Of a DNA stretch of 64,000 nucleotides, positions 1 to 12,262 are shown in pieces. The position numbers and the translations under genes are program-made. Origin of the DNA: an uncultured bacterium (GTDB taxonomy: Bacteria > Bacillota > Clostridia > Oscillospirales > Oscillospiraceae); contig CAMCCC010000010.1 in the NCBI GenBank assembly GCA_945873205.1, positions 1 to 64,000 of the forward strand. Reading direction: 5' to 3'. How positions within the stretch are numbered: position 1 is the stretch's first letter; each line of letters starts with the position of its first letter. The notes under the pieces were generated by a model. It made no database searches. It had not been told where the DNA came from and worked only from the letters and a program-made list of their open reading frames with translations.

Positions 1-175
1 TTTTCAGGCGGTTTTCATCGTGTACTCTGCCATTGACCGTGAAAAATGCTCCGTTCACCGTGATCATTGGATAGTCCCGGAGAAATTCTTCGCAGAACAT
101 GGCTTCGTTGATTTTCTTACCGTCAAACCACGCCGGATTTTCAAAGTGCGTGGCCTGCGTCATTTCCTCGCTCAT
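1..175 (-). CDS. Plasmid/phage-type primase-helicase, N-terminal end only
   Basis: The reading frame opens with MSEEMTQATHFENPAWFDG and runs off the left edge after about 58 codons, so only the N-terminus is visible. GGGGAGG sits 9 bases before the ATG at 175; an in-frame ATG at 184 is too close to that site. The frame overlaps the end of the CHC2 zinc-finger gene by 35 bases, so the two are translationally linked. From memory, P4-type primase/D5-like helicases of Clostridia mobile elements follow a CHC2 protein in this order, which is the main reason for the call. No catalytic motif is visible in the part present. It could be another replication protein of the element. Confidence 0.45.
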   Translation of the reverse strand, partial: MSEEMTQATHFENPAWFDGKKINEAMFCEEFLRDYPMITVNGAFFTVNGRVHDENRLK

Positions 176-773
176 GGCGTACATCCTCCCCTCTCTTTCT
201 TACGGTGTAGTCCTGGAGAAATGCAATCTTGCCATCCTTCATCAGCTCATCCACCACAGCAACACGTTCTTCCAAATCTCCTACGGTCAGAATGTCAGTC
301 AGATACTCGGTGCGGTCAAGCATCTGGCAGGCTTCCACAAAACGGTCATCCAGATCATCGTCCGGCGTTTTCGGGGCATACCAAACCTTCCAATCTTCCA
401 ACAGATGCAGATAATCCGTCAGCACACGGAAGCAGAGCATTTCATCTTCCCGAAACTGCCGGATGTGGAGTCGCTTTGGTTTGTGGGGAGCTGCCACCGC
501 TTGTCCCTGCTCGGTGCTGATACCGAAGTCCGCAGCAAGCCTTTGCGCCGCTTCATAGCTGCTCAGATCAAACAGCCTCGCCGCAAAGTCAATCACATCC
601 CCATTGGCTCCGCAGCCGAAGCAGAAGAAATATTCCTCGTTCAGCTTCATGCTGGGATGCTTGTCATTGTGGAACGGGCAACAAGCCATGCCGTTTCTGT
701 TGACTTTCAGCCCGTAGTGTTCGGCAGCTTGTCTTACGGAGACTGCTGCCTTCACAGTTTCAAAAATATTCAA
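141..773 (-). CDS. CHC2 zinc-finger primase-like protein
   Basis: A 210-residue protein with a DnaG-type CHC2 zinc ribbon near its N-terminus: CPFH, then CFGC 18 residues later, followed by GANGDVIDFAARLF. This domain binds template DNA during primer synthesis. No TOPRIM catalytic domain follows, so this is a split or accessory primase of a mobile element. The frame is open to 1094, but AGCAGGAGG lies 10 bases before a TTG at 773, giving the expected start MNIFETVKAAV; the upstream ATG codons have no ribosome site. The 3' end overlaps the next replication gene. Together they mark the replication module of an integrative element. Start choice is an inference; the domain is clear. Confidence 0.8.
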   Translation of the reverse strand: MNIFETVKAAVSVRQAAEHYGLKVNRNGMACCPFHNDKHPSMKLNEEYFFCFGCGANGDVIDFAARLFDLSSYEAAQRLAADFGISTEQGQAVAAPHKPKRLHIRQFREDEMLCFRVLTDYLHLLEDWKVWYAPKTPDDDLDDRFVEACQMLDRTEYLTDILTVGDLEERVAVVDELMKDGKIAFLQDYTVRKRGEDVRHERGNDAGHAL

Positions 774-1038
774 ATAGTGATAATCCTCCTGCTTGCTCTT
801 GGTTAAGCCGTTCTTCCCATTCCGTTTCCTGACAGGCAACCCTGCTCGGCGCTGTGTCGTCTCCTTTGTGGAGCGCTCGTTCCTTTTACAGAAGTCATGG
901 CGGTTTATCTCGGTCTGGACGGTCATTCGATTTTCAAAGTGTCTTTTCGATCGATCGTGAGCCAAGTTTACCGCAAAAAATAAGCGGCCTTCGCTTATGC
1001 ACGAAAGCCGCAAATATCGGAAGTATAGACTTAAGAAA
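774..1038. other. Non-coding leader between divergent primase and XRE genes
   Basis: About 265 bases without a convincing gene. The primase frame stays open across most of it but has no start signal. It contains the hairpin listed at 984-1011 and nothing else I recognise. Confidence 0.5.
984..1011 (-). terminator. Intrinsic terminator/attenuator ahead of the primase genes
   Basis: Arms GCGGCCTTCG and CGAAAGCCGC pair with one mismatch around an 8-base loop. Read leftwards the hairpin is followed by TTATTTTTT. It lies upstream of the primase pair and just behind the rightward XRE promoter, so it could stop leftward antisense RNA or attenuate transcription into the replication genes. Confidence 0.55.
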
Positions 1039-1067
1039 TTGCAAATTTGCACAGGGTAGATTATAAT
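1039..1067 (+). promoter_or_regulatory. Promoter of the XRE regulator with an internal palindrome
   Basis: TTGCAA (1039-1044), 17 bases, TATAAT (1062-1067). The perfect palindrome TGCAAATTTGCA (1040-1051) overlaps the -35 box and spacer, a good place for an autorepressor to bind. The box covers the ATG at 1066, so translation must start downstream, at 1093. Confidence 0.7.
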
Positions 1068-1092
1068 GATAGTAGGTTGGGAGGCGTTGCAC

Positions 1093-1920
1093 ATGAAGAA
1101 GAGCTATGACGATGAGCAGGAAAATACCACTGCGTACCGTGTCCGCCTATTACGCCAGGACAGGGGATGGAGCCAAAAAGAGCTGGCAGACAAAATATTT
1201 GTTGCCCACTCCCAGATCAGCCGTTTGGAGAGTGGAGAAACCACAAATATAGGCAGCGCTTTGTTAGTCTCGCTGGCTAAGGTATTCCATGTTTCAGCAG
1301 ATTATCTACTTTGCCTTACGCCCATCAGCGTACCGAAAAGCTATGATATTTCCCAGCTGGGATTATCAGAGGAAGTAATCCGCAGGTTGATTTTGAAAAC
1401 GATTGACCCCGATGTGTTAAACAGGCTTTTGGAGCATGACCAGTTCCCAAAACTTTGTGCTTTGATGAAGAACTATTTTAGCAACACCGTTGCAAATGGC
1501 ATCATGGCAAGAAACCAGATCATTGACCTCGCCACTGATCCTCTTGCAGAGCTGATGAGCGCCGATCCTTCAAAGCGAACGGAAATGATAAAAGATCTGA
1601 GTTTTCTGAATTCCAGCAAAATTCAGAGTAATGAAGCAGACATAGAGAAAATCAAAAACATATTGATGAAGATCATCCGGGACATAAAAGAGAATATGGC
1701 AGAGGAGCAACCCAGCGGAGCGCTTGCTACAGCAGAAGCAGTAAAGGGGATTCGTGCCGCATTACCGGACAAGCCTCAATCAGAGTTGACAGCCGATGAT
1801 GTGTCAACAGCCATTACTGCCTACATAGGAACGATGATCACAATGGACGAGCATACTTCAGAACTGTTCCAGCAGCTTGCCAAACAAGTTCTTGAGCTTC
1901 CCTTAGACGAGAAAAACTAA
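1093..1920 (+). CDS. XRE-family transcriptional regulator of the mobile element
   Basis: A 275-residue protein with an N-terminal helix-turn-helix (about residues 10-65: YRVRLLRQDRGWSQKEL, then HSQISRLESGE) typical of XRE/Cro DNA-binding proteins. The remaining ~200 residues are helical and charged with no family I recognise; they may dimerise or sense a signal. GGGAGG lies 8 bases before the ATG at 1093; the ATG at 1066 falls inside the promoter -10 box and is rejected. It stands alone between the replication genes and the putative transfer origin, the usual place for a master regulator of an integrative element. Autoregulation through the TGCAAATTTGCA palindrome is inferred. Confidence 0.75.
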   Translation: MKKSYDDEQENTTAYRVRLLRQDRGWSQKELADKIFVAHSQISRLESGETTNIGSALLVSLAKVFHVSADYLLCLTPISVPKSYDISQLGLSEEVIRRLILKTIDPDVLNRLLEHDQFPKLCALMKNYFSNTVANGIMARNQIIDLATDPLAELMSADPSKRTEMIKDLSFLNSSKIQSNEADIEKIKNILMKIIRDIKENMAEEQPSGALATAEAVKGIRAALPDKPQSELTADDVSTAITAYIGTMITMDEHTSELFQQLAKQVLELPLDEKN

Positions 1921-2173: not shown

Positions 2174-2329
2174 GCAAGCAAAATCGTGTGCCAACAGGGA
2201 TGCTTCTCGCCCCTATTGGAAGACCCAGAGCCAAGGGGATTCTCCCCTCTGGACACCCTATATTTTCGGTTAAAGGTGGATAGCCAAACCTTCATACAGC
2301 TTTGGGCATTTCCACTTTTACCGACAATA

Positions 2330-2380
2330 AAAAACGCTACAGGATTCATCTACTAAAGAAGTGAATCCTGTAGCGTTTTT
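2330..2380. terminator. Strong bidirectional hairpin terminator
   Basis: Perfect 19-bp arms (2330-2348 and 2362-2380; AAAAACGCTACAGGATTCA and its complement) enclose a 13-base loop, with A and T runs at the two ends. It can end leftward transcription of the restriction operon and rightward transcription from the XRE gene. Confidence 0.85.
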
Positions 2381-2465
2381 CATGTTATACGCATACACAC
2401 GTATAAGGATCATCTTGTGCGCCATACGCTAAGCCCACACTAATTCTTGCGAAAACACACTGGGC

Positions 2466-4160
2466 TTAATCCGATAAAATGCTTGCAAGGGACTCTATCT
2501 GCAGGGCTCGTGAACTTGTTAAAAGGTTGATTTGCTGATCTGTCAAACTCCTCATGTTTTGGTTGCATTTCCTTAGGAGGAATTTACCAACGACATTTTT
2601 ACGTGATGTAGGACAAGCTGTACCGAATAGTTGAATAAAGTCAGGCCATCTAACCTCATCTTCACCTGCTTTCTTTTTCAGCTTTCCATCTCGATACAGT
2701 GATGTACGGATATCATTTCTTTTAGATTCAAACTTGTGTTGAATTTCAACATGGTTTGCTTGGATTATTCCGTTTTGCCATTCCGTCACTTCCTCGGTTG
2801 TTTTACCTGTTATTTCGGCGACATGCTCGGCAGTTGTAAAATATGCTTCTATATCACATTCATCTGTAATCCACAAAGGAAGATGTTCGCTTTCAAAACG
2901 CTGTTTCACCACGGAAATTTCCTCATCCGTCATGAAATCTCTGTCCCTATGGATTATTACTTTGCATGTTCTGGCAGAGGATTTAATAAAGTTAGCTAAT
3001 TGAATCGCGGAATCCAAATGACTACAGCTATTATAAGGGATGACTAAAGTTTGTGCCATCACACATCCGTTTACTTCAAGAATCTTCTTTAAGTATTTGG
3101 TATCACTATCTTCAGTTAATACAACGGTTGTGTATATTCCTTGAAGAATTGCGTCATAAGAGTCCAACGCCCCTAAATCCAGTAAAACATTATAGAAATT
3201 AGATGATTGGTCATCGGTGCACACTGTACCGGATTTCATCCAAATGAAGCGCGCATCACCATCAAGTGCAGATATCATGTGTCGACTATGAGTACTTAAA
3301 ATCACTTGCAGGTTCATTTCATGTACAAGTAATCTTATAGCATCGCACAAAAGAACCTGATTACTGGGGTGCAAATGTTCATCTGGTTCATCTAAAAGCA
3401 TCAGTTTAGGCTTGAAATACACGGAATAAGCCATTATTTGTATAACTTGAAGAAGACCTGTTCCGCAAAGCTCTAAGGGGAGAGTTTTTCCGCCAGTGCT
3501 TACATTTACAGAAATATTAATTTCTGTATCTGGGTCATATGGAACAGAAAGACTATAGTTTGGGAACACTGTGCGGATAAGCTTATTGAGATTAGTTAAT
3601 CTGCCTTCTTCCTTTATGTAATAAAGAATGTTTCGCAAATAAAGATTTGCATCTCCGTTTGCGGCGGCATTTCGTAGTACTGCCGGAGAAACCAACTTTT
3701 CACTTAATGGAATACCCGCAAGGCCGGGAGTATATGCAGAGTATAGATCCTTGTTAGAAGTAACTTGTTGCCTAAACTTGTTGTTGCCAGAAGTATTGAT
3801 AGAAATATTCCCGAAATTCCGACCTTTACTAAGGGTTATTTGAACTAAATCTGGAGTATCATTTGTCTCGGAATCGCTCATTAGAGTGAGCGAACTGGTT
3901 GCGCCTGAATAATTTGTGTAAGGACTATCATGTCTAAGAACTGCAAAATCAGAGGATGGCAGATACAACAATCTATCCTGTGGCACAGTAGTACCCCCTG
4001 AAACACGTCGTGCCACTTCTGCCATAATGGTAAATTGAATGCCTTGTAGCACACTACTTTTTCCCGAATTATTAGTGCCTACTAAAACATTGATATCATC
4101 TAAATCCGTTTCAAATTCGATCACACGCTTAAATTTTTCAAGTTTAATATGAGTAATCAT
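2466..4160 (-). CDS. AAA ATPase fused to a TOPRIM-like nuclease domain (OLD/PARIS-like)
   Basis: A 564-residue protein, last gene of the restriction operon. Residues 1-310 form an SMC/RecF-like ATPase: Walker A GTNNSGKSS (28-36), signature-like CGTGLLQ, Walker B LMLLDEPDEHLHP (253-264), H-loop STHS (289-292). Residues ~340-564 look like a TOPRIM/DUF4435-type nuclease: VLTEDSDTKYLKKIL with E350, IIHRDRDF with D406 and D408, then DECDIEAYF. This domain pair occurs in OLD nucleases and, as separate genes AriA/AriB, in the PARIS anti-phage system; the RDRDF motif resembles DUF4435 more than classical OLD. AGGAGG lies 9 bases before the ATG at 4160, 19 bases after the hsdR stop. A defence role follows from domain type and operon; the exact family is inferred. 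Confidence 0.72.
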   Translation of the reverse strand: MITHIKLEKFKRVIEFETDLDDINVLVGTNNSGKSSVLQGIQFTIMAEVARRVSGGTTVPQDRLLYLPSSDFAVLRHDSPYTNYSGATSSLTLMSDSETNDTPDLVQITLSKGRNFGNISINTSGNNKFRQQVTSNKDLYSAYTPGLAGIPLSEKLVSPAVLRNAAANGDANLYLRNILYYIKEEGRLTNLNKLIRTVFPNYSLSVPYDPDTEINISVNVSTGGKTLPLELCGTGLLQVIQIMAYSVYFKPKLMLLDEPDEHLHPSNQVLLCDAIRLLVHEMNLQVILSTHSRHMISALDGDARFIWMKSGTVCTDDQSSNFYNVLLDLGALDSYDAILQGIYTTVVLTEDSDTKYLKKILEVNGCVMAQTLVIPYNSCSHLDSAIQLANFIKSSARTCKVIIHRDRDFMTDEEISVVKQRFESEHLPLWITDECDIEAYFTTAEHVAEITGKTTEEVTEWQNGIIQANHVEIQHKFESKRNDIRTSLYRDGKLKKKAGEDEVRWPDFIQLFGTACPTSRKNVVGKFLLRKCNQNMRSLTDQQINLLTSSRALQIESLASILSD

Positions 4161-4179
4161 TCGTGGTTTCCTCCTGCGC

Positions 4180-7173
4180 TCATATTGGCCGCTGAACATC
4201 TTTCTGCCTTAAGCGATCATACACAACGCCGATCAGAAGATCTCGAACTGTATCACCGAATTTAGCATCGTCCAGAACCCTTTCGCAGAATTGTTGATTC
4301 TGTGCCATACGTCCAATGACAACATCCATAAAAGCATCGTTGAATGGGAAACGGAAATGCTCCTGAGAATTGTTGCGAGCCTGGATACGCAATTCTTCGT
4401 TGGCATCCATGTCAGAAACAATCTGCTCCAGAACCTTATCAATGTTGGTAAACTCGGTGCCGAACTTCTCATTGATCTTGTCGATCAACTCGGATAGCGG
4501 TGCCTTTTCTTCTTCCGGCTTTGGTTTGCCGGGATGAATTTTGTTTGGCAGAGGATCGCTCTGCTCCAAAGCTATGGAACCTTCGAAAATTTTCTGAACC
4601 CGGTAATACTGCAATGCAACTTCATCATCCAAGAACACCTGTCCACCGCCCTCACGCTTCGGCAGCTTCTTTTGCAGGAACTTGGCATAGGCGTGGAATT
4701 TATGGAGGTCTGCATCATCCAGCCGGATAATATTTGTCAGGAATGTATAGGCACGGACAAACTTAGTCAGCGTAGATTTGAATTCTTCCTGCTCATTTTC
4801 TTCCAATCCCTTGTACCGATCCACAGCAGGGTCGAGGAAGCTATTGAGGATGCCAAAGTCCATATTGCCCTGTTTTTTGCTGGGCTTGAAAAATACCTTT
4901 GCAAAAGATTCAATCTCACTTGCCCAGTAGACTCGGAATTCGTCCAGCTTGGATTTTAGTTCATAGACAATATTTGCGTCAGTAGTTTCTTCGATGGTAG
5001 TTTCCTCGTAATACGGGGCAAATGCCGCACGGATATCTTCTGCTGAATTTACGAAATCCAGCACGAAAGTATCTTCTTTACCAAAGCAGGTTCGATTCAG
5101 GCGTGAAAGGGTCTGTACAGCCTTTACGCCGCTGAGCTTCTTATCCACAAACATGGTATGCAGCAGCGGTTCGTCAAAGCCAGTCTGATACTTTTCTGCA
5201 ACCAGCAGCACCTGATATTCACCGCCGTGGAACTTCTCTGGCAGTTCGCTTTCCTTAATTCCATTCAGGCTGACTTCGGTGTATTCCACGCCGCCGTCAC
5301 GTACAGTCCCAGAGAAAGCAATCAGGATTCCAAGCTCATTTTCATAACCCATCTTCTTGATATACCGCTGGAATTCCTGATAGTAGCGAACAGCGTGCAA
5401 ACGGGAACCGGTGACAACCATGGCCTTAGCCTTGCCGCCAATCTTGTTCTTGGTGACGGTACGGAAATGCTCTACAATAATCTGCGTTTTTTGCGCCAAA
5501 TTATGCGGATGCAGGCTCAGGAATTTGCCCAGAGCCTTGTTCGCCTTACTCTTTTCATAGCGAGGATCATCCGCAATCTTCTTGCCGATCTTGAAGTAGG
5601 TATCATAGGTCACATAGTTTTTCAAGACATCCAGGATAAAACCCTCCTGAATTGCCTGCTTCATAGAGTAGATATGGAACGCCCGAGGAATTCCGTTTGC
5701 ATCAGGCGTACCGAACATTTCCAGAGTCTTTGCCTTGGGTGTTGCGGTAAATGCAAAGAAGGACAAATTTGCCAAACGGCCGTGAGTGGCCATTTCCTTG
5801 GTGATCTCATCCTCGCTATCAGACTGTTTATGCTCCTCTTTGGCTTCTTCGTCGGCAACCTTCTGAAGCTGTTCTTCTTCGGTCAGCCCTTCTGTATCAC
5901 CCAGAATTGCTTTCATCTTTTTGCTGGCTTCGCCGGTCTGTGAAGAATGAGCCTCATCAACGATGATGGCAAACCGTTTTCCACTCAGATCGTCCACTTT
6001 TTCAAGAATGAATGGGAACTTCTGCAACGTAGTGATGATAATCTTCTTGCCTGTGTTTAGAGCGTCCGCCAGTTGAGCCGCATTGTTGTCAATCTTAACA
6101 ACAACACCTTCCACGTGTTCAAACTGATAGATTGTGTCCTGCAGCTGCTTGTCCAGCACCAGACGGTCAGTAATCACAATAATGCTGTTGAATATAACTT
6201 TATCATTTTTGTCGTGCAGATTGGACAGGTGGTGTGCCAGCCAGGAGATGGAATTGGATTTACCGCTGCCTGCGCTGTGCTGAATCAAGTAGTTACGTCC
6301 GGTGCCATGCTCGTATACATCGGCAACCAATTTGCGAACAACATCCAACTGATGATAGCGTGGGAAGATCATTACGGACTTCTTGGGATTCTTTTTGTCC
6401 TCCTGAAGATGGATAAATCGCTGAACGATATCCAGCAAGCTGTCCTTCTGCAACACTTCGTCCCACAAATAGGAAGTGCGGTATGTTCCACTGCCGATGG
6501 GATTTCCCTTGCCACCATTATTGCCTTTGTTGAATGGCAGGAAGTATGTATTGATACCGTCCAGCTTGGTGGTCATCCATACTTCGTCGGTATCTACAGC
6601 AAAGTGAACCAGGCACCGGGATTTGAAAGAAAGTAGCAGCTCTCGAGGATCACGATCTTTCATGTACTGATGCTTTGCATTTTCTACGGTCTGACCGGTC
6701 GCCGGATTTTTCAATTCCAAAGTTGCCATCGGCAAGCCGTTGATAAATAATACGACATCAATAGAGTTTTCGTTTTTCAGGCTGTAATGTACCTGCCGGG
6801 TAATGGAGAGAATATTTTTCTCATAAAGTGCCTGACTGGTCTGGTTCATACCGCTGGCAGGTTTGAAGAAACACATGGAGAACTTTGCCGGGGCATCCAC
6901 GATGCCGTGGCGAAGAACATACAGCATACCATGGGTATCCAAATCCCGGTACAGCTTTTTTAGAAAGCCGGTTTCCACGTCATCGCCATGCTTCTTGCAT
7001 AGTTTGGCCCATTCCGCAGGTTGACTCTCCTGGAGGAAGCGGAACAGTTGTTTTGTGTCAACAGCAAACTCCCGATTATAGTCACGAGGATTACCCTTGA
7101 TGTATCCGCCGTGGTCAAGCAGGCTGTATTCAATTTCACGCTCAAAGGTAATCTCCTTGGTTTCGATTGCCAT
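4180..7173 (-). CDS. hsdR: Type I restriction enzyme, restriction/translocase subunit
   Basis: A 997-residue HsdR, the motor and nuclease of a type I restriction-modification complex; it translocates DNA with ATP and cleaves at a distance from unmethylated targets. The PD-(D/E)xK nuclease is near residues 138-155 (IDVVLFINGLPMATLELK, D139, E153, K155). The superfamily 2 helicase follows: Walker A HSAGSGKSNS, DEAH-box IVDEAHSSQ, and FAFTATPKAKT. Length is normal and no frame break is seen. The start lies 14 bases after the stop of the membrane-protein gene, and the ATPase-TOPRIM gene follows 19 bases downstream. Its codon use is more AT-rich than the chromosome right of 12.6 kb, in keeping with transfer. 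Confidence 0.95.
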   Translation of the reverse strand: MAIETKEITFEREIEYSLLDHGGYIKGNPRDYNREFAVDTKQLFRFLQESQPAEWAKLCKKHGDDVETGFLKKLYRDLDTHGMLYVLRHGIVDAPAKFSMCFFKPASGMNQTSQALYEKNILSITRQVHYSLKNENSIDVVLFINGLPMATLELKNPATGQTVENAKHQYMKDRDPRELLLSFKSRCLVHFAVDTDEVWMTTKLDGINTYFLPFNKGNNGGKGNPIGSGTYRTSYLWDEVLQKDSLLDIVQRFIHLQEDKKNPKKSVMIFPRYHQLDVVRKLVADVYEHGTGRNYLIQHSAGSGKSNSISWLAHHLSNLHDKNDKVIFNSIIVITDRLVLDKQLQDTIYQFEHVEGVVVKIDNNAAQLADALNTGKKIIITTLQKFPFILEKVDDLSGKRFAIIVDEAHSSQTGEASKKMKAILGDTEGLTEEEQLQKVADEEAKEEHKQSDSEDEITKEMATHGRLANLSFFAFTATPKAKTLEMFGTPDANGIPRAFHIYSMKQAIQEGFILDVLKNYVTYDTYFKIGKKIADDPRYEKSKANKALGKFLSLHPHNLAQKTQIIVEHFRTVTKNKIGGKAKAMVVTGSRLHAVRYYQEFQRYIKKMGYENELGILIAFSGTVRDGGVEYTEVSLNGIKESELPEKFHGGEYQVLLVAEKYQTGFDEPLLHTMFVDKKLSGVKAVQTLSRLNRTCFGKEDTFVLDFVNSAEDIRAAFAPYYEETTIEETTDANIVYELKSKLDEFRVYWASEIESFAKVFFKPSKKQGNMDFGILNSFLDPAVDRYKGLEENEQEEFKSTLTKFVRAYTFLTNIIRLDDADLHKFHAYAKFLQKKLPKREGGGQVFLDDEVALQYYRVQKIFEGSIALEQSDPLPNKIHPGKPKPEEEKAPLSELIDKINEKFGTEFTNIDKVLEQIVSDMDANEELRIQARNNSQEHFRFPFNDAFMDVVIGRMAQNQQFCERVLDDAKFGDTVRDLLIGVVYDRLRQKDVQRPI

Positions 7174-7187
7174 TACTGACCACCCCC

Positions 7188-7775
7188 TTATTTTTTGTTC
7201 TTAATAATCTCTCCAACCTTCTTAATTTCACCGGTCATTTTTTCTTGTTGTTTTTCAATTGCTTCAAGAGCCTTGGCCATTTTTTCAAAATGGCGAGAGT
7301 CCGATTCATTAAGCTTGGTGGAGTTTTTCTGGATTGTGATATCTACATCAAACGTGGATGAAGTTTTTCCCATCGTAAGAACAACAGGAATTGTCGTTGT
7401 TTCGTCAGTCACTTTTATTCTTTCTGCAAATGCAATTTTATGATCCGATGCGTGGATGAAATAGGAAACAGGAATCAAATAGTCTTCACCAGGTTTCAGG
7501 AAAGGAATTGTGCCAAAATCTACATCCTGAATTTTTACATTGATATTCTGTGCCACAGCATTCCCGTAGTTGTACACCTCAACATATAGGTTGCTATTAC
7601 CACTTGCGGCAGGTTTTTCAATACTTTTGCAAAAAAGCTTTGTGGACTGCTTGGTCTGAAAAAAGTATGTTTTTGCCGCAAAAATCACAAGGCCAATAGT
7701 CAAAATGATGAAAGCGACATAATAGATGAGTTCCCACTGTTCTGTACAAAGCCACAAAAAGTAATAATTGCTCAT
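7188..7775 (-). CDS. Membrane-anchored protein of unknown function inside the hsd operon
   Basis: A 195-residue protein I cannot assign to a family. It has one hydrophobic segment near the N-terminus (about residues 16-36, YYVAFIILTIGLVIFAAKTYF), then a ~110-residue stretch of short alternating segments that looks like an immunoglobulin-like beta-sandwich (NLYVEVYNYGNAVAQNINVKI). A lysine/glutamate-rich predicted coiled coil closes the protein (FEKMAKALEAIEKQQEKMTGEI). Its ATG overlaps the hsdS stop (ATGA), and hsdR starts 14 bases after its stop, so it is a fixed part of the operon. Membrane proteins are not part of known type I enzymes. It may tether or sense, or be a separate effector. The N-in topology is a guess. 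Confidence 0.75.
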   Translation of the reverse strand: MSNYYFLWLCTEQWELIYYVAFIILTIGLVIFAAKTYFFQTKQSTKLFCKSIEKPAASGNSNLYVEVYNYGNAVAQNINVKIQDVDFGTIPFLKPGEDYLIPVSYFIHASDHKIAFAERIKVTDETTTIPVVLTMGKTSSTFDVDITIQKNSTKLNESDSRHFEKMAKALEAIEKQQEKMTGEIKKVGEIIKNKK

Positions 7776-9052
7776 TCTACTGCCACCTTTCCGGTTACCA
7801 CTTCAGAGATAACACTCTGACGGTATTCCTTTAGTTTTTCGATCTGCTCGGTAACATCAGAAATGATGCTGTCAATTCGAGCGGTTTTTCTGTTGAGATA
7901 TTCGGCAATCTTCTTTTGTTCATCCTTTGGGATCAGCGGAAGTGGTACTTGAACAAAATTAGAGAATCTCAGATCCTGTCCATCCCGGATAAAGTTGGCT
8001 GTGCGCTGCAATGCCTGAATATATCGTGGTGACTTGAACAGCCATTTGAAATACTCTGATTCCACTCCGTCCTTGGGTTTTAGCACAATATAGTGCCATG
8101 TAATGCAGCCAGGAACGTAACTGATTTCCAGACCTCCCTGGAAGCTGCGTAAGCTAATTATGAAATCATTCGGTTCCACATGTTTCCAGTCATCCAACCC
8201 TTTGTCGGCGAGAACAATTTTGGTGCTCTGTAAAGCCATATAGTCTTCTTGGGAGATAATACCGTATTTCTGACTGGCAGTTAACTGAATATCATCATCT
8301 TGCCGAGTTTCTTTGCTCTGTGAAAACAGTGCCTTTGCAGGAACAACTTGCCAGTGCGCAGGAATTTCCCCAAGCCATTCAACACCACTGTCTTTCATTT
8401 TGGCAGTAGCGTCAATTCCTTTGGTTACTGCAGAACATATTATTGATGTGCGCTGCTCTTCCAAAAGTTGAATGAGCTTTTCTTTGTCAGAAATCGCAGT
8501 GTCAACTGCCGCGGTCTTTCTATCCAAATAATCAGCTATACATTTCTGGACATCATTCGGCGGTAATACATTCTTGATATCAACCATTTCAGAAGCGTTA
8601 ATTGCTGGATAACTAACACCTACCGATCGTGAAGACACCGTTTCGACAAAGTAGTGATTTGCAAGAGAATATGCAAGGAATCTGGAGTCAACTTCTTTAG
8701 GCCGTATAACTGCAAACCCGGTGGATGCAATAACATCTTTGTCGTCCTGGATACTCGCTACAGCCTTCAAATAAGTTCGCACGGTAGAAACGATTACGTC
8801 ACCGGTTCGAACAATACGTCTTGCCCGAGATGGAGCATCCTCAAAAGAAAAACCTTGATAGTGTTCAATCCCGTTTTGCAAAGTCACACTTCCGATATCA
8901 ACATAACGGAATTCATAGTTTGGGGCAGTGTTTTCTGTTAATACCTCGTCATTGGTCGTTGTGTAGTATTTTAATTTCTTTATGCTCCAGTCGACAGGTA
9001 TTTCGCCTATCCACGAAACACCGCTATCTTTATATGCTTGATATCTCTTCAT
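7772..9052 (-). CDS. hsdS: Type I restriction-modification specificity subunit
   Basis: A 426-residue HsdS with two target-recognition domains, each followed by a conserved helical spacer: DYLDRKTAAVDTAISDKEKLI near residue 175 and YLNRKTARIDSIISDVTEQI near the C-terminus. Each domain starts with the usual W(I/L)GEIP motif (VSWIGEIPVDW, VEWLGEIPAHW). It chooses the bipartite DNA site methylated by HsdM2HsdS and cut by HsdR. The ATG overlaps the hsdM stop by 4 bases, and its own stop overlaps the next start by 4. The target sequence cannot be read from the protein. Confidence 0.93.
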   Translation of the reverse strand: MKRYQAYKDSGVSWIGEIPVDWSIKKLKYYTTTNDEVLTENTAPNYEFRYVDIGSVTLQNGIEHYQGFSFEDAPSRARRIVRTGDVIVSTVRTYLKAVASIQDDKDVIASTGFAVIRPKEVDSRFLAYSLANHYFVETVSSRSVGVSYPAINASEMVDIKNVLPPNDVQKCIADYLDRKTAAVDTAISDKEKLIQLLEEQRTSIICSAVTKGIDATAKMKDSGVEWLGEIPAHWQVVPAKALFSQSKETRQDDDIQLTASQKYGIISQEDYMALQSTKIVLADKGLDDWKHVEPNDFIISLRSFQGGLEISYVPGCITWHYIVLKPKDGVESEYFKWLFKSPRYIQALQRTANFIRDGQDLRFSNFVQVPLPLIPKDEQKKIAEYLNRKTARIDSIISDVTEQIEKLKEYRQSVISEVVTGKVAVE

Positions 9053-10764
9053 TCCGCAAACACCTCCGCCAAACTCGTCTGGATACGAGCTTCTAAAGCT
9101 TTGATGTCCTCCATAATCACGGAGCTGTCACGCAGCGGAGTGAACTTATAGAAATAGCGGGTAAAGGGAATTTCATAGCCGATCTTAGTCTTGCTCTCAT
9201 CAATCCAGGCATCGGGAACGAATGGCAAAACCTCTCGGCGGAAATATTCGTGGATGTCTTCCTTCAGTGGTACTATCTCGTAGTCACGAAGGGAGGCATC
9301 CGCTTTTCTGTTACCCTTACGGTCAGTTACTGGGGTGCCGTCCTCATTCAGCAAAGGACGCTCCACAACGATTTTCCGATAGCCAAAATCATCGTTGCCC
9401 AAATCCATATAATTCTCATCCGGTTCATAAGTGCTGTACAGACGAACAATTTCTGCTCGGTTTTCCGGGCTGATCATATTTCGTTTATTACCCAGTCCTT
9501 TACGCATCTTCTCATAGAAACCGGCACCGTTGATCAGACGCACCTTGCCCTTTCTGCGATTCTCTTTCCGGTTGGTGAGAATCCAAATGTATGTGGTAAT
9601 CCCGGTGTTGTAGAACAGCTGGTCAGGCAGACCGATAATGGCTTCTAACAGATCGTTTTCGATGATCCAGCGGCGGATCTCACTTTCGCCGCTGCCAGCA
9701 TCGCCAGAAAACATGGGAGACCCGTTAAAGACAATCCCAATGCGGCTGCCGCCATTTTCCGGCGCATTCATCTTGGAGATCAGATGCTGTAGGAATAAGA
9801 AAGAACCATCAGAAATACGTGGCAAACCAGCGCCAAAACGGCCACTATAGCCTTTGTTTTTAGCTTCGTCCTTGATAAATTTCTCAACTTTCTTCCATTC
9901 CACGCCAAAAGGAGGATTGCTCAGCATATAGTCGAAGGTCTGTCCTTGAAAACCATCTTCATTAAAGCTGTTGCCCAGAACAATTCGACTGTTAGTATTT
10001 CCCTTAAGGATCATGTCAGAGCAACAGGTGGCATATGTTTCGGGATTCAATTCTTGACCAAAGGGGATCACTCTGGTAGTGGCGTTCAATGCCTGCATCT
10101 TATTCTGAGCCACAGAGAGCATACCGCCCGTGCCACAGGCAGGATCAAGAATGGTGATAACCTTGCCATCGGTGGTGGCAATCTCGTCCATATCAGGATC
10201 AAGCAGTACTTCCACCATCAGCTCAATAACCTCACGGGGCGTAAAGTGTTCACCAGCGGTCTCGTTCGATTGTTCAGAGAACCGACGGATCAGTTCTTCA
10301 AACATATAGCCCATTTCCAGGTTATCAATCTGGGTATCGCTCATGTCGATCTCGGCAAATCGCTGCACAACTAAATACAACAGGTTTGCACGGGAGAGCT
10401 TGTCAATTACACCGAAGATTTCAAAGTTATCCATGATCTCACGGACATCCTCGGAGAAACCATTTATGTAATCACGCAGGTTCGCTTCGATGGCATTGCT
10501 GTCATCCATCAGCTTTTCAAAATCAAACTGGCTGATGTTGTAGTAGTCGTGGCCGGTCATACGCTTGAAAATAGGTCGTTTGTTGCTGACAGTCAGCGTT
10601 TTGTTTGCTTCCAGGATCTTTGCTTTGGAAGGGGCCAGCACACAGTCAAAACGGCGCAGGACAGTAAATGGCAGGATCACCTTGCCGTATTCGCTTTGCT
10701 TAAAATCACCACGGAGCAGGTCTGCGATACTCCATATGAAATTTGCTTGTTCGTTAATGTTCAT
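9049..10764 (-). CDS. hsdM: Type I restriction-modification DNA methyltransferase
   Basis: A 571-residue N6-adenine methyltransferase. The N-terminal HsdM bundle (NFIWSIADLLRGDFKQSEYG) is followed by the SAM-binding motif I DPACGTGGM (207-215) and the catalytic NPPF (283-286). It methylates the HsdS-defined site and protects host DNA. Its ATG overlaps the stop of the small Phd-like gene (ATGA), and hsdS overlaps its own stop, so all three are translationally coupled. Length and motifs are complete, so the enzyme is probably active. Confidence 0.95.
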   Translation of the reverse strand: MNINEQANFIWSIADLLRGDFKQSEYGKVILPFTVLRRFDCVLAPSKAKILEANKTLTVSNKRPIFKRMTGHDYYNISQFDFEKLMDDSNAIEANLRDYINGFSEDVREIMDNFEIFGVIDKLSRANLLYLVVQRFAEIDMSDTQIDNLEMGYMFEELIRRFSEQSNETAGEHFTPREVIELMVEVLLDPDMDEIATTDGKVITILDPACGTGGMLSVAQNKMQALNATTRVIPFGQELNPETYATCCSDMILKGNTNSRIVLGNSFNEDGFQGQTFDYMLSNPPFGVEWKKVEKFIKDEAKNKGYSGRFGAGLPRISDGSFLFLQHLISKMNAPENGGSRIGIVFNGSPMFSGDAGSGESEIRRWIIENDLLEAIIGLPDQLFYNTGITTYIWILTNRKENRRKGKVRLINGAGFYEKMRKGLGNKRNMISPENRAEIVRLYSTYEPDENYMDLGNDDFGYRKIVVERPLLNEDGTPVTDRKGNRKADASLRDYEIVPLKEDIHEYFRREVLPFVPDAWIDESKTKIGYEIPFTRYFYKFTPLRDSSVIMEDIKALEARIQTSLAEVFAE

Positions 10765-10967
10765 CAGATATCTGCTCCTTCTTCTCTGAGCCGTAAATAT
10801 CGCTCGTATGAGATAACAACGTTTTGCGGCTTGTTTTGCTTGTTGACGATCAGAACCTTATCCCGTTCTTTCACTTCCTTGAAAATACGTGATGCCTGAC
10901 CTTTCTGAAAACTTGTAATCGCTTCATAATCAGGATTCACATTGGAAGATGCCCTCCTTTTTGCCAC
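10764..10967 (-). CDS. Phd/YefM-like small DNA-binding protein leading the hsd operon
   Basis: A 67-residue protein: basic N-terminus (MAKRRAS), then SFQKGQASRIFKEVKERDKVLIVNKQNKPQNVVISYERYLRL. This matches the Phd/YefM antitoxin N-terminal fold (helix, KV.. strand, PxxVxIS strand, YERYLxL helix). The C-terminal toxin-wrapping tail is very short and no toxin gene follows; hsdM starts on its stop codon. I therefore read it as a transcriptional regulator of the restriction operon, not as part of a toxin-antitoxin pair. Start is GTG at 10967 with GAGGTGG upstream. A paired 15-bp inverted repeat surrounds the promoter just ahead. Confidence 0.65.
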   Translation of the reverse strand: MAKRRASSNVNPDYEAITSFQKGQASRIFKEVKERDKVLIVNKQNKPQNVVISYERYLRLREEGADI

Positions 10968-11002: not shown

Positions 11003-11062
11003 ATTATAGCACAAAGTCATTACTTTTAGCAAGTTAAAAATCTATATAAAAGTAATGACTTT
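11003..11062 (-). promoter_or_regulatory. Promoter and inverted-repeat operator of the restriction operon
   Basis: Reading leftwards: TTGCTA (11032-11027), 18 bases, TATAAT (11008-11003). Two perfect 15-bp arms (AAAGTCATTACTTTT at 11013-11027 and its complement at 11048-11062) stand 20 bases apart, one upstream of the -35 box and the other between -35 and -10. The arrangement fits two binding sites for a dimeric repressor; the first gene of the operon is the obvious candidate. Confidence 0.65.
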
Positions 11063-11083: not shown

Positions 11084-11533
11084 TTACAGCATTGTCACTG
11101 TAATCAAGCCCTTTCTCTCCCGCTTCTGCGCATACTCTGCCAATTCTCTGGCGTTGCTTGCAGAATGCCATGCATAGGCGATCAGATAATCAACATGATC
11201 CACCACATATCGGTTTGCTCTGACAATTGCAAGGCGACGGGGCACCTTTTCCATGTCCGGAGGATAATAGGTACTGTCAAAACCTTTCGGCTTTTCAATC
11301 GGTCGTTCAGCCGGATGATATGGGAGCAACAGTACCAGCGTAATCTGCGGGTGTTGCCGTTTTGCCCGAATTACAGCGCTGGCTGCAAGACGGTCAAACC
11401 CGCCATAGCCACCAACAATAAACTCTGTAACGCTATATTCAGAAATATGTTGTTCAATTGCTCTCTCCAGGGCGGGAAGAATCTCCGTTGAGGCTTCCCG
11501 ATGACCAATAAAAAAGCAGCTTTTGTTATTCAT
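11084..11533 (-). CDS. SLOG-family (DUF1273-like) protein
   Basis: A 149-residue protein with a Rossmann-like SLOG fold: CFFIGHREA at the N-terminus and the ligand-binding glycine motif GGYGGFDRLAA (41-51). SLOG proteins bind nucleotide-derived ligands, and some are sensors in defence systems; small ones like this are frequent in Clostridia mobile elements with no defined role. GGGGG lies 9 bases before the ATG. It is divergent from an XRE regulator and sits upstream of, but separately promoted from, the restriction operon. Whether it belongs to that defence cluster is open. Confidence 0.7.
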   Translation of the reverse strand: MNNKSCFFIGHREASTEILPALERAIEQHISEYSVTEFIVGGYGGFDRLAASAVIRAKRQHPQITLVLLLPYHPAERPIEKPKGFDSTYYPPDMEKVPRRLAIVRANRYVVDHVDYLIAYAWHSASNARELAEYAQKRERKGLITVTML

Positions 11534-11648
11534 AACTTCACGCCCCCTTGCTTTTACATATCGTTAAAATAATACGATGTATACGATTAAAATGCAACGA
11601 CTTGTCGAATTATAATTTACGAAGAAAGCAAGTAAAGGGGTGAGTGTA
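11534..11648. promoter_or_regulatory. Divergent regulatory region between the SLOG and XRE genes
   Basis: AT-rich, 115 bases. It holds TATAAT at 11611-11616 for the rightward gene without a good -35 box, and repeated motifs (ATCGTTAAAAT, ACGATTAAAAT) with ATCGT/ACGAT arms, possible binding sites for the XRE protein. Confidence 0.4.
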
Positions 11649-11954
11649 GTGAAAGATATTCTTACGGCTATAACTGAATACCGTGAAGCAAGAGGCTGGA
11701 CAGAATATCAGCTTGCAGAACACTCAGGCTTGCCACAGTCCACCATTTCTTCCTGGTATCGCAAAAACATGATACCGACAATTCCTTCTCTTGAAAAAAT
11801 CTGTACAGCATTTGGGATCACGCTATCTCAATTGTTTGCTGAAGGCAACACACCTGTTTCTTTGACTGAATCTCAGCAGAAGCTGCTGGAGCGCTGGTCA
11901 AGATTGAGTGAAGATCAGCAAGCCGTTGTGTTTGCTTTGATTGATAAAATGTAA
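11649..11954 (+). CDS. Small XRE-family transcriptional regulator
   Basis: A 101-residue protein. Residues 1-65 are an XRE helix-turn-helix (YQLAEHSGLPQSTISSWYRK, then PSLEKICTAFGITLSQLF), and a short helix (LLERWSRLSEDQQAVVFALIDKM) closes it. This form is common on Clostridia mobile elements. GTG at 11649 is chosen because AAAGGGG lies 8 bases ahead; the GTG at 11640 overlaps that site. It is divergent from the SLOG gene and likely controls the shared region between them. Confidence 0.75.
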   Translation: MKDILTAITEYREARGWTEYQLAEHSGLPQSTISSWYRKNMIPTIPSLEKICTAFGITLSQLFAEGNTPVSLTESQQKLLERWSRLSEDQQAVVFALIDKM

Positions 11955-11960
11955 AAAAGA

Positions 11961-12003
11961 GCCGCCAGTACCGGCACCGTAGGGTGCCAGAACTGGCGGC
12001 TTT
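11961..12003 (+). terminator. Intrinsic terminator of the small XRE gene
   Basis: GCCGCCAGT (11961-11969) pairs with ACTGGCGGC (11992-12000), with an inner GGCACC/GGGTGCC stem, followed by TTT. Confidence 0.85.
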
Positions 12004-12006
12004 CAA

Positions 12007-12252
12007 TTAGTCCAGAGACTTATACTCTGTTATTGTCTTCAAATAGATTTCTGGATTTCCATTAAGAATTAGATCAGCATAGGCAATTGGGTCATTGTAG
12101 ATGAGATAGTCTAACTCTGACCGTTGATACATATTGTCGGCAATCTCGTTCTCCACGGCGATCGTGTCAATGGAAATCATGCTGCCATCGGCAAATTTCA
12201 GTTCAACACAGGCAGTATCCATATTGAACTCACAGGAAATCAAGCGCTCCAT
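12007..12252 (-). CDS. DUF6061-like small protein of the mobile element
   Basis: An 81-residue acidic protein beginning MERLISCEFNMDTACVELKF and containing IDTIAVENEIADNMYQRSELDYL. I recall this family (DUF6061) as a frequent passenger next to the integration end of Clostridia mobile elements; no function is known. GAGG lies 8 bases before the ATG at 12252; the in-frame GTG at 12261 overlaps that site. It ends 10 bases before the element-derived tail of rlmD. Confidence 0.6.
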   Translation of the reverse strand: MERLISCEFNMDTACVELKFADGSMISIDTIAVENEIADNMYQRSELDYLIYNDPIAYADLILNGNPEIYLKTITEYKSLD

Positions 12253-12262
12253 ATTCGTCACC

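What the first reader, a model, noticed from the sequence alone, without database searches (positions are those of the whole stretch)
2466..10967. Six-gene type I restriction operon with three non-canonical members
Overlapping or near-touching genes encode, in order, a Phd-like protein, HsdM, HsdS, a one-helix membrane protein, HsdR and an AAA ATPase-TOPRIM fusion. Stop/start overlaps (10764, 9049-9052, 7772-7775) show one transcription unit. Known type I systems consist of HsdRMS; here a regulator, a membrane partner and a second, OLD/PARIS-like effector are built in. PARIS is triggered by phage anti-restriction proteins, so a restriction enzyme carrying its own back-up effector would make sense. 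This is my best candidate for an undescribed composite defence system.
Basis: partly seen in the sequence, partly recalled or inferred. Interest (0 to 1): 0.85.

Follow-up and report, generated by a model that had tools for sequence, protein, structure and literature searches.

The report
Restriction operon carrying two swappable genes
A normal bacterial DNA-restriction operon, probably switched by its own small repressor, carries two extra defence-type genes that sister bacteria lack or replace, so this is a new example of a known modular design and not a new six-part defence machine.

Summary
They are not a conserved six-gene system. Two other genera of the same family keep the core (HsdM 94.6%, HsdR 93.4%, Phd-like 86.6% identical) in colinear order. 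There the 195-aa gene is replaced, at the same ATGA junction, by an unrelated 126-aa membrane protein, and no ATPase gene follows hsdR. Among 43 loci examined, only the window has the 195-aa gene or this ATPase behind hsdR. The one outside relative of the 195-aa protein found has no hsd gene nearby. Of 90 loci with ATPase relatives, 3 lie in an hsd gene run. Related operons carry Hachiman, Gabija, GmrSD, McrBC-like, SIR2, TIR or AbiJ genes at their junctions. The regulator reading is sharpened: paired palindromes (AAAGTNATNACTTT) overlap the Phd-like gene's promoter, the only two places in the assembly, and recur in three other loci, one before a different methylase. Backbone-plus-cargo is known (EcoprrI/PrrC, TgvAB, RptR-DarTG2). 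Newer points: a Phd-type repressor attached to N6-methylase systems, and repeated small membrane proteins at the hsdS-hsdR junction.

The parts
11003..11032 (-). promoter-like site, -35 TTGCTA, 18-nt spacer, TG-extended TATAAT
   Evidence: by eye the same place as TTGACA..TATGAT in L155
11049..11062 (.). upstream operator-like palindrome AAAGTAATGACTTT
11013..11026 (.). second operator-like palindrome AAAGTCATTACTTT, between -35 and -10
   Evidence: with the other it forms a perfect 16-nt inverted repeat (11013-11028 / 11047-11062)
10764..10967 (-). Phd/YefM-family protein, 67 aa, no toxin gene beside it; probable regulator
9049..10764 (-). HsdM, 571 aa (DPACGTG, NPPF motifs)
7772..9052 (-). 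HsdS, 426 aa, two recognition-domain stretches
7188..7775 (-). cargo gene in the S-R slot: 195 aa, one N-terminal hydrophobic helix, predicted helical C-terminus
   Evidence: homology with sister operons breaks at 7772 and resumes at 7188
4180..7173 (-). HsdR, 997 aa (AGSGKS, DEAH, TATP, QTLSRLNR; ELK in HSDR_N)
2466..4160 (-). cargo gene after hsdR: single-chain ABC ATPase plus Toprim-like domain, 564 aa
   Evidence: absent after hsdR in both sister operons
2327..2383 (-). intrinsic terminator, 22-nt arms then U-run
11084..11533 (-). YspA/SLOG-like gene (below Pfam cut-off), conserved neighbour
   Evidence: 70% identity in both sisters
11640..11954 (+). XRE-type HTH gene, conserved neighbour
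   Evidence: 88%
12007..12261 (-). DUF6061 gene, conserved neighbour
   Evidence: 64-65%

Best explanation
This is a type I restriction-modification operon with a four-gene core (Phd-like regulator, hsdM, hsdS, hsdR) and two interchangeable accessory genes, one at the hsdS-hsdR junction and one behind hsdR. Shown by comparison: the core, the two insertion places, and conservation of the paired palindromes. Inferred: dimers of the Phd-like protein bind the two palindromes, one of which lies between -35 and -10, and repress the whole operon until phage infection or gene transfer relieves it. HsdMS methylates self DNA and HsdRMS cuts unmethylated DNA. The ATPase-Toprim acts as an independent second line: its ABC ATPase senses an invader's activity and its Toprim-like domain cuts DNA or tRNA, as in OLD and PARIS proteins. 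The 195-aa protein is membrane anchored and is either a membrane effector or a tether; this step is the least sure.
For: Sister operons L178 and L179 (two other genera) are colinear from DUF6061 to hsdR; window homology breaks at 7772, resumes at 7188 and ends near 4211. Their S-R slot holds an unrelated 126-aa gene with the same ATGA overlap, and no ATPase gene follows hsdR. 16 of 36 operons with S and R on one stretch have an S-R gap over 200 nt, with varied genes there and behind hsdR. Palindrome pattern: only 2 places in the 2.22-Mb assembly, both before the Phd-like gene; the pair recurs in L155, L178, L179. Of 9 close Phd loci 8 are followed directly by an N6 DNA methylase gene (6 HsdM, 2 other kinds, L155 and L177); the ninth is cut there. 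ATPase tree: the four hsd-linked members are not one clade (3 changes; starred branches force at least 2).
Against: L178 and L179 are 96-98% identical over the shared stretches, so they may be one event. All comparisons rest on assemblies, some incomplete; several of the 43 loci are cut before or after hsdR. The exact palindrome is found in only 4 of the 9 close Phd loci; L132, L176 and L177 have other inverted repeats and L174 and L175 none of 9 nt. The ATPase does recur, though rarely, inside modification-based systems (hsd: L012, L020, L036; type III methyltransferase: L026, L068; BREX: L016; near a cytosine methyltransferase: L015), which may mean real cooperation and not mere cargo. No expression or binding data exist. 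The function given to the two cargo proteins is inferred from distant relatives; the 195-aa fold is unknown (model pLDDT 52.7).
Confidence: 0.8

Rival explanations
1. One reading: six co-adapted genes form one new composite defence system in which the ATPase-Toprim is the dedicated back-up of this very restriction enzyme and the membrane protein its partner.
For: Tight overlaps, a probable promoter and a terminator; precedent in PrrC, which is held inactive by EcoprrI (PMC3874165, PMC3506569 passages).
Against: Neither accessory gene is found with this backbone in any of the 42 other loci examined (some are cut short); sister operons lack both; the 195-aa homologue has no hsd gene in the 20 kb read.
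Confidence: 0.06
2. Guardian reading: the ATPase-Toprim is captured cargo, yet works with whatever modification system it sits in, firing when a phage protein blocks that system, as PrrC and PARIS do.
For: Of 90 relatives, 3 sit in hsd gene runs, 2 beside type III methyltransferases, 1 in BREX and 1 near a cytosine methyltransferase; the hsd cluster is the most recurrent neighbour (4 of 90); Toprim-like domain weakly AriB-like; guardian concept in PMC12707154 (passages).
Against: For the other relatives no such neighbour was seen with the profiles used, though not every gene was annotated and many contigs are short. Integrase, Y-polymerase, YchF and LexA-like genes (named by eye) recur almost as often, in 3 of 90 each. 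No DUF4435; nearest solved structure is the class 1 OLD 6p74 (E 1.7e-16), AriA is far weaker (2.5e-5).
Confidence: 0.3
3. The Phd-like protein is a true antitoxin and one of the other products (195-aa or ATPase) is its toxin.
For: Phd/YefM family membership; antitoxin-like first genes recur before hsdM by annotation (MqsA-type L135, HigA-type L197).
Against: Close Phd relatives are followed by methylase genes and occur without the 195-aa or ATPase genes; toxin-type neighbours were seen only with distant relatives (by eye; HipA in L189 and a sub-threshold ParE match in L187; L181 no match).
Confidence: 0.05
4. The genes lie together by chance in a defence island and are not one transcription unit.
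For: Promoter-like sites are no more numerous than expected.
Against: 4-nt ATGA overlaps at two junctions, a 1-nt overlap at 10764, gaps of 14 and 19 nt at the others; no minus-strand terminator-like site at a junction (two weak ones lie inside hsdM), and a strong hairpin after the last gene.
Confidence: 0.05

Closest known systems
RptR-hsdM-hsdS-DarTG2-hsdR-M48 island of E. coli (PMC12255303, passages read)
   Same: Small repressor as first gene with repeated palindromes at the promoter; foreign defence genes between hsdS and hsdR; a further gene after hsdR
   Different: RptR binds 6-bp TAGCTA sites; here a Phd-type protein and AAAGTNATNACTTT (binding not shown); the cargo is different
EcoprrI with prrC (PMC3874165, PMC3506569, passages read)
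   Same: An ATPase-type effector embedded in a type I operon as second line
   Different: PrrC is an anticodon nuclease; here an OLD/PARIS-like protein behind hsdR, physical coupling unknown
TgvAB within the type I cluster of VPI-2 (PMC11411939, passages read)
   Same: Embedded defence genes that also occur alone (1,341 against 79 five-gene hits in that paper)
   Different: GmrSD-type genes; none in the window operon
Class 1 OLD nucleases, TsOLD 6P74 (PMC10568477, passages read)
   Same: Single-chain ABC ATPase plus C-terminal acidic domain; best profile and Foldseek match among solved structures
   Different: Low overall fold score (TM 0.35); the C-terminal domain alone matches no solved structure by sequence and not GajA, and is nearer AriB/mad4; sits in an operon
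PARIS AriA-AriB (PMC9122126, passages read)
   Same: AAA_15 ATPase with Toprim-type partner; single-gene fusions exist
   Different: No DUF4435 match; trigger unknown

Membership tests
Type I restriction-modification | HsdM with N6-methylase and HsdM_N domains and motifs | tested here: met
Type I restriction-modification | HsdS with two target-recognition stretches | tested here: met
Type I restriction-modification | HsdR with nuclease domain and SF2 motor motifs | tested here: met
Type I restriction-modification | methylation and cleavage activity | not testable with these tools
   needs bench work
PARIS | AAA_15 or AAA_21 ATPase over the published score thresholds (32, 27) | tested here: met
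   88.9 and 63.5 bits; thresholds from PMC9122126
PARIS | DUF4435 domain or partner | tested here: not met
   window protein: 8 Pfam families, none DUF4435; not among the 25 of 29 families listed for 34 relatives
PARIS | AriB-like Toprim | tested here: inconclusive
   9 of 34 members match PADLOC AriB weakly (best 7.5e-5); the window protein matches only mad4 (0.0041)
PARIS | triggered by anti-restriction proteins | not testable with these tools
   needs bench work
OLD nucleases, class 1 | ABC-type ATPase domain in a single-chain protein, nearest to OLD | tested here: met
OLD nucleases, class 1 | C-terminal Toprim domain | tested here: inconclusive
   invariant acidic residues and a whole-chain Foldseek match to 6p74, but no Pfam, PDB-sequence or GajA match for the domain alone
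OLD nucleases, class 1 | lone gene, not beside other defence genes | tested here: not met
   in the window it lies in the hsd operon; 33 of 90 relatives have a co-directional ORF within 30 nt, many of them short
Phd/YefM antitoxins | family profile over curated cut-off | tested here: inconclusive
   TIGR01552 over cut-off; PF02604 20.0 bits, under its 29.8
Phd/YefM antitoxins | adjacent toxin gene | tested here: not met
   next gene is hsdM; a methylase gene also in 7 of 8 other close loci, the eighth cut
RptR-type islands | first-gene repressor with operator at the operon promoter | tested here: inconclusive
   anatomy fits; binding and repression not shown
RptR-type islands | RptR homology | not tested
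   RptR sequence not compared; operator differs
PrrC-type guardians | effector held inactive by the host R-M complex | not testable with these tools
   needs bench work

The most novel reading that the evidence does not exclude
The hsdS-hsdR junction of this type I family is a reserved place for small membrane-anchored proteins of unrelated sequence (195 aa here; 126 aa in the sister operons, whose anchor tail recurs on another head in L153 and L154; L121, L126, L136). They tie the restriction enzyme to the membrane where phage DNA enters, or damage the membrane when the enzyme is blocked. The operon would then be a layered guardian under one Phd-type repressor.
Probability: 0.2. Interest if true: 0.7.

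Novelty: new variant of a known kind. Interest (0 to 1): 0.42.

Why it matters
It gives a clean natural experiment: operon cores 93-95% identical in HsdM and HsdR with different genes at the same nucleotide junction, showing that type I operons are carriers with fixed loading places. It names a testable candidate repressor attached to N6-methylase systems (seen in the window's family, a Corynebacterium plasmid and IMG/VR contigs), and points to an unexplained run of small membrane proteins at one junction. It also warns that tight gene overlap alone does not prove one functional system.

Tried and rejected
Single-protein scan of genome contigs with the ATPase found nothing; the alignment scan did. 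The 195-aa protein gave no relatives in plasmids, viral contigs or 294 other genomes of the order. The 126-aa slot protein gave none in plasmids. The 195-aa single-sequence model is poor, so no fold search was made with it. HsdR in viral contigs: nothing. ATPase in phages: nothing. The C-terminal domain alone found no credible solved structure by sequence (best E 0.97) and no link to GajA. A search for the MADS paper found none; MADS is named from PADLOC/NCBIfam labels and recall. Toxin-antitoxin reading rejected. Membrane-protein census: 6 of 16 wide S-R gaps hold one small protein with a hydrophobic segment (window, L121, L126, L136, L178, L179; the last two near-duplicates), against 18 of 66 background ORFs of 100-220 aa, many perhaps not genes; suggestive, not tested for significance. 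The count of 16-nt perfect inverted repeats (6 in the window, 0 in 60 simulated sequences) is not specific to the operator, so I rest.
Full report
WHAT IS THERE. On the minus strand of the window six genes run head to tail: Phd-like (10967-10764), hsdM (10764-9049), hsdS (9052-7772), a 195-aa gene (7775-7188), hsdR (7173-4180) and a 564-aa ATPase gene (4160-2466). A promoter-like site with an extended -10 lies at 11032-11003 and a 22-nt-arm hairpin with a U-run closes the unit at 2383-2327 (-34 kcal/mol, z -8.3, 0 of 200 shuffles as good). The scan as a whole finds no more promoter-like sites than chance (20 against 18.2), so the promoter rests on its place and conservation. HsdM, HsdR and ATPase motifs are present. 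The genome assembly (91% complete) has this single HSDR_N locus.

THE DECISIVE COMPARISON. A profile of the Phd-like protein, searched in 300 genomes of the family, found 16 with a match, the window's own included. Two of them (G1198 = L178, G1139 = L179; other genera) carry a colinear block: DUF6061 (64-65% amino-acid identity), XRE (88%), SLOG (70%), Phd-like (86.6%), hsdM (94.6%), hsdS (78% in L179, 33% in L178, whose recognition part differs), hsdR (93.4%). By BLASTN homology stops at window 7772, the end of hsdS, and resumes at 7188, the end of the 195-aa gene. In both sisters that place holds an unrelated 126-aa gene that starts on the same ATGA and has a C-terminal hydrophobic segment (mean hydropathy 2.25). 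Homology ends at about 4211, near the hsdR stop; no ATPase gene follows hsdR in either, and TBLASTN finds no credible remnant of either cargo protein (best E 0.78). L178 and L179 are 95.8-97.5% identical over the shared operon stretches, so they may count as one event.

THE EXTRA GENES DRIFT. The 195-aa protein: 1 of 295 genomes of the order (its own), 2 of 391 of the class, 1 of 299 of the phylum with a two-row profile, no plasmid record, no viral contig by pattern scan. The one relative (L149, 38%) has no hsd gene in the 20 kb read and lies beside transposase-like ORFs (by eye). In those 90 loci it lies in an hsd gene run in 3 (L020 and L036 directly touching, L012 with one gene between) and has hsd genes 2.5-8.4 kb away in 3 more (L046, L089, L093). 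It also stands between a type III methyltransferase and a UvrD-like gene in 2 (L026, L068), in BREX in 1 (L016) and two genes from a cytosine methyltransferase in 1 (L015). Many contigs are short and my hsd profiles came from this family, so these are lower bounds. Among neighbour clusters hsd is the commonest (4 of 90), but integrase, Y-polymerase, YchF and LexA-like clusters (named by eye) reach 3 each. In a tree of 91 rows the four hsd-linked members need 3 changes, and well-supported branches force at least 2 (quick method, no bootstrap), so a single inherited linkage is not supported.

THE SAME PLACES CARRY OTHER GENES. HsdR relatives were taken from 17 of 295 genomes of the order, own included, the plasmid search (762 records, of which I opened 15), genus mates (5 of 61 genomes matched, own included), and loci found through the ATPase or Phd. 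Of 43 loci examined, window included, 36 have hsdS and hsdR on one stretch; 16 of those 36 have an S-R gap over 200 nt. Contents include an AAA plus HNH pair (L134, annotation), RhuM (L135, annotation), a TIR match just under Pfam's cut-off (L152), and small membrane proteins (window, L121, L126, L136, L178, L179). At the M-S junction: AbiJ-type (L152) and others. Behind hsdR: HamAB (L116, L128), Gabija (L153), GmrSD (L119), McrBC-like (L124), SIR2 (L121), an AAA_13 pair (L117). Only the window has the 195-aa gene; only the window has this ATPase behind hsdR, L089 having a relative 2.5 kb upstream of hsdM. Several loci are cut at a contig end.

THE REGULATOR. Upstream of the Phd-like gene is a perfect 16-nt inverted repeat (11013-11028 / 11047-11062). 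Each arm holds a near-palindrome, AAAGTNATNACTTT. That pattern occurs at only two places in the 2.22-Mb assembly, these two (reversed control pattern 0). One lies between -35 and -10. L155, a genus mate whose Phd-like gene precedes a different N6-methylase (HSDR_N_2 plus N6_Mtase, 26% identical to HsdM over 199 residues), has two copies of the perfect palindrome AAAGTAATTACTTT in the same layout; L178 and L179 have the pair too. So 4 of the 9 close loci (profile bits 77 or more, window included) share the sequence. L132 (Corynebacterium plasmid), L176 and L177 have inverted repeats of other sequence; L174 and L175 have none of 9 nt. 8 of the 9 are followed by a DNA methylase gene: 6 HsdM (window, L132, L175, L176, L178, L179) and two other N6-methylases (L155, and L177 with a TaqI_C domain); L174 is cut there. 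The 13 distant matches (29-46 bits) include ordinary-looking antitoxins beside toxin-like genes (by eye; HipA in L189, sub-threshold ParE in L187). So the protein is best read as an antitoxin-fold repressor given over to N6-methylase systems. Literature searches showed tvrAT, a Phd-Doc pair inside a pneumococcal type I locus (PMC6265443, passages), and RptR; no lone Phd-type repressor heading a type I operon was seen in those listings, and most subscription papers are not in that library.

THE ATPASE-TOPRIM. AlphaFold model: pLDDT 89.1, pTM 0.68. Best PDB match by profile and by Foldseek E-value is TsOLD 6p74 (E 1.7e-16; Foldseek 4.3e-12 but TM only 0.35); AriA comes far lower by profile (2.5e-5). 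The C-terminal domain alone has no Pfam match in the window protein, no credible PDB sequence match and no link to one GajA, but weak PADLOC matches to AriB (9 of 34), mad4 (6 of 34, the window among them at 0.0041), HEC-01B and ATPase-Toprim_I-B (2 each for one model of each). Its acidic pattern is invariant. It is OLD/PARIS-like, a proven member of neither. By analogy it is an ATPase-gated nuclease that stops phage growth, target unknown.

MECHANISM. Shown: core, slots, palindrome conservation. Inferred: repression and induction; restriction; independent second line. A guardian link to the restriction enzyme is possible (0.3) but not needed. The 195-aa protein could be effector or tether; I lean to effector-like membrane cargo, weakly.

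WHAT IS KNOWN. PrrC in EcoprrI (PMC3874165, PMC3506569), TgvAB inside a type I cluster (PMC11411939), RptR with DarTG2 between hsdS and hsdR (PMC12255303), guardians (PMC12707154), PARIS (PMC9122126), OLD classes (PMC10568477): passages read. The window is a new variant of that kind.

Noticed in passing
L153:16701-17036, L154:1-327, L178:10280-10657: Small proteins with different heads share a membrane-anchor tail (REWRIAV...; 61-72% over 25-31 aa), as if an anchor were kept while heads change.
   Followed up: partly
L115-L116 (G008): Two hsdR genes of one family 8.5 kb apart with Hachiman HamAB and GmrSD genes between them; one hsdR follows hsdM with no hsdS found.
   Followed up: partly
L153:5443-12240: Gabija gajA-gajB directly behind hsdR; hsdR itself appears as two ORFs.
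   Followed up: no
L026:7060-13806, L068:5233-13762: Type III methyltransferase, ATPase-Toprim and UvrD-like helicase as a recurrent trio; L068 also has a DUF262-like gene in front.
   Followed up: partly
L155:6974-10631 and L177:5630-7564: The Phd-like regulator also heads non-hsdM N6-methylase genes, in L155 with the same palindrome pair.
   Followed up: partly
window 141-1094: ORF with a CHC2-type primase motif (by eye) near the contig start, suggesting a mobile element; a similar ORF lies behind the operon in L179.
   Followed up: no
L135, L197, L116, L127: Other antitoxin-like or HTH first genes before hsdM (MqsA-type and HigA-type by annotation, HTH_17 in L116, an HTH-like ORF by eye in L127), so the regulator slot also seems exchangeable.
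   Followed up: no
L007-L096: Y-family polymerase, LexA-like and integrase genes recur near some ATPase-Toprim relatives, in 3 of 90 loci each (named by eye).
   Followed up: no
window 11084-12261: SLOG, XRE and DUF6061 genes travel with the operon in three genera; roles unknown.
   Followed up: partly
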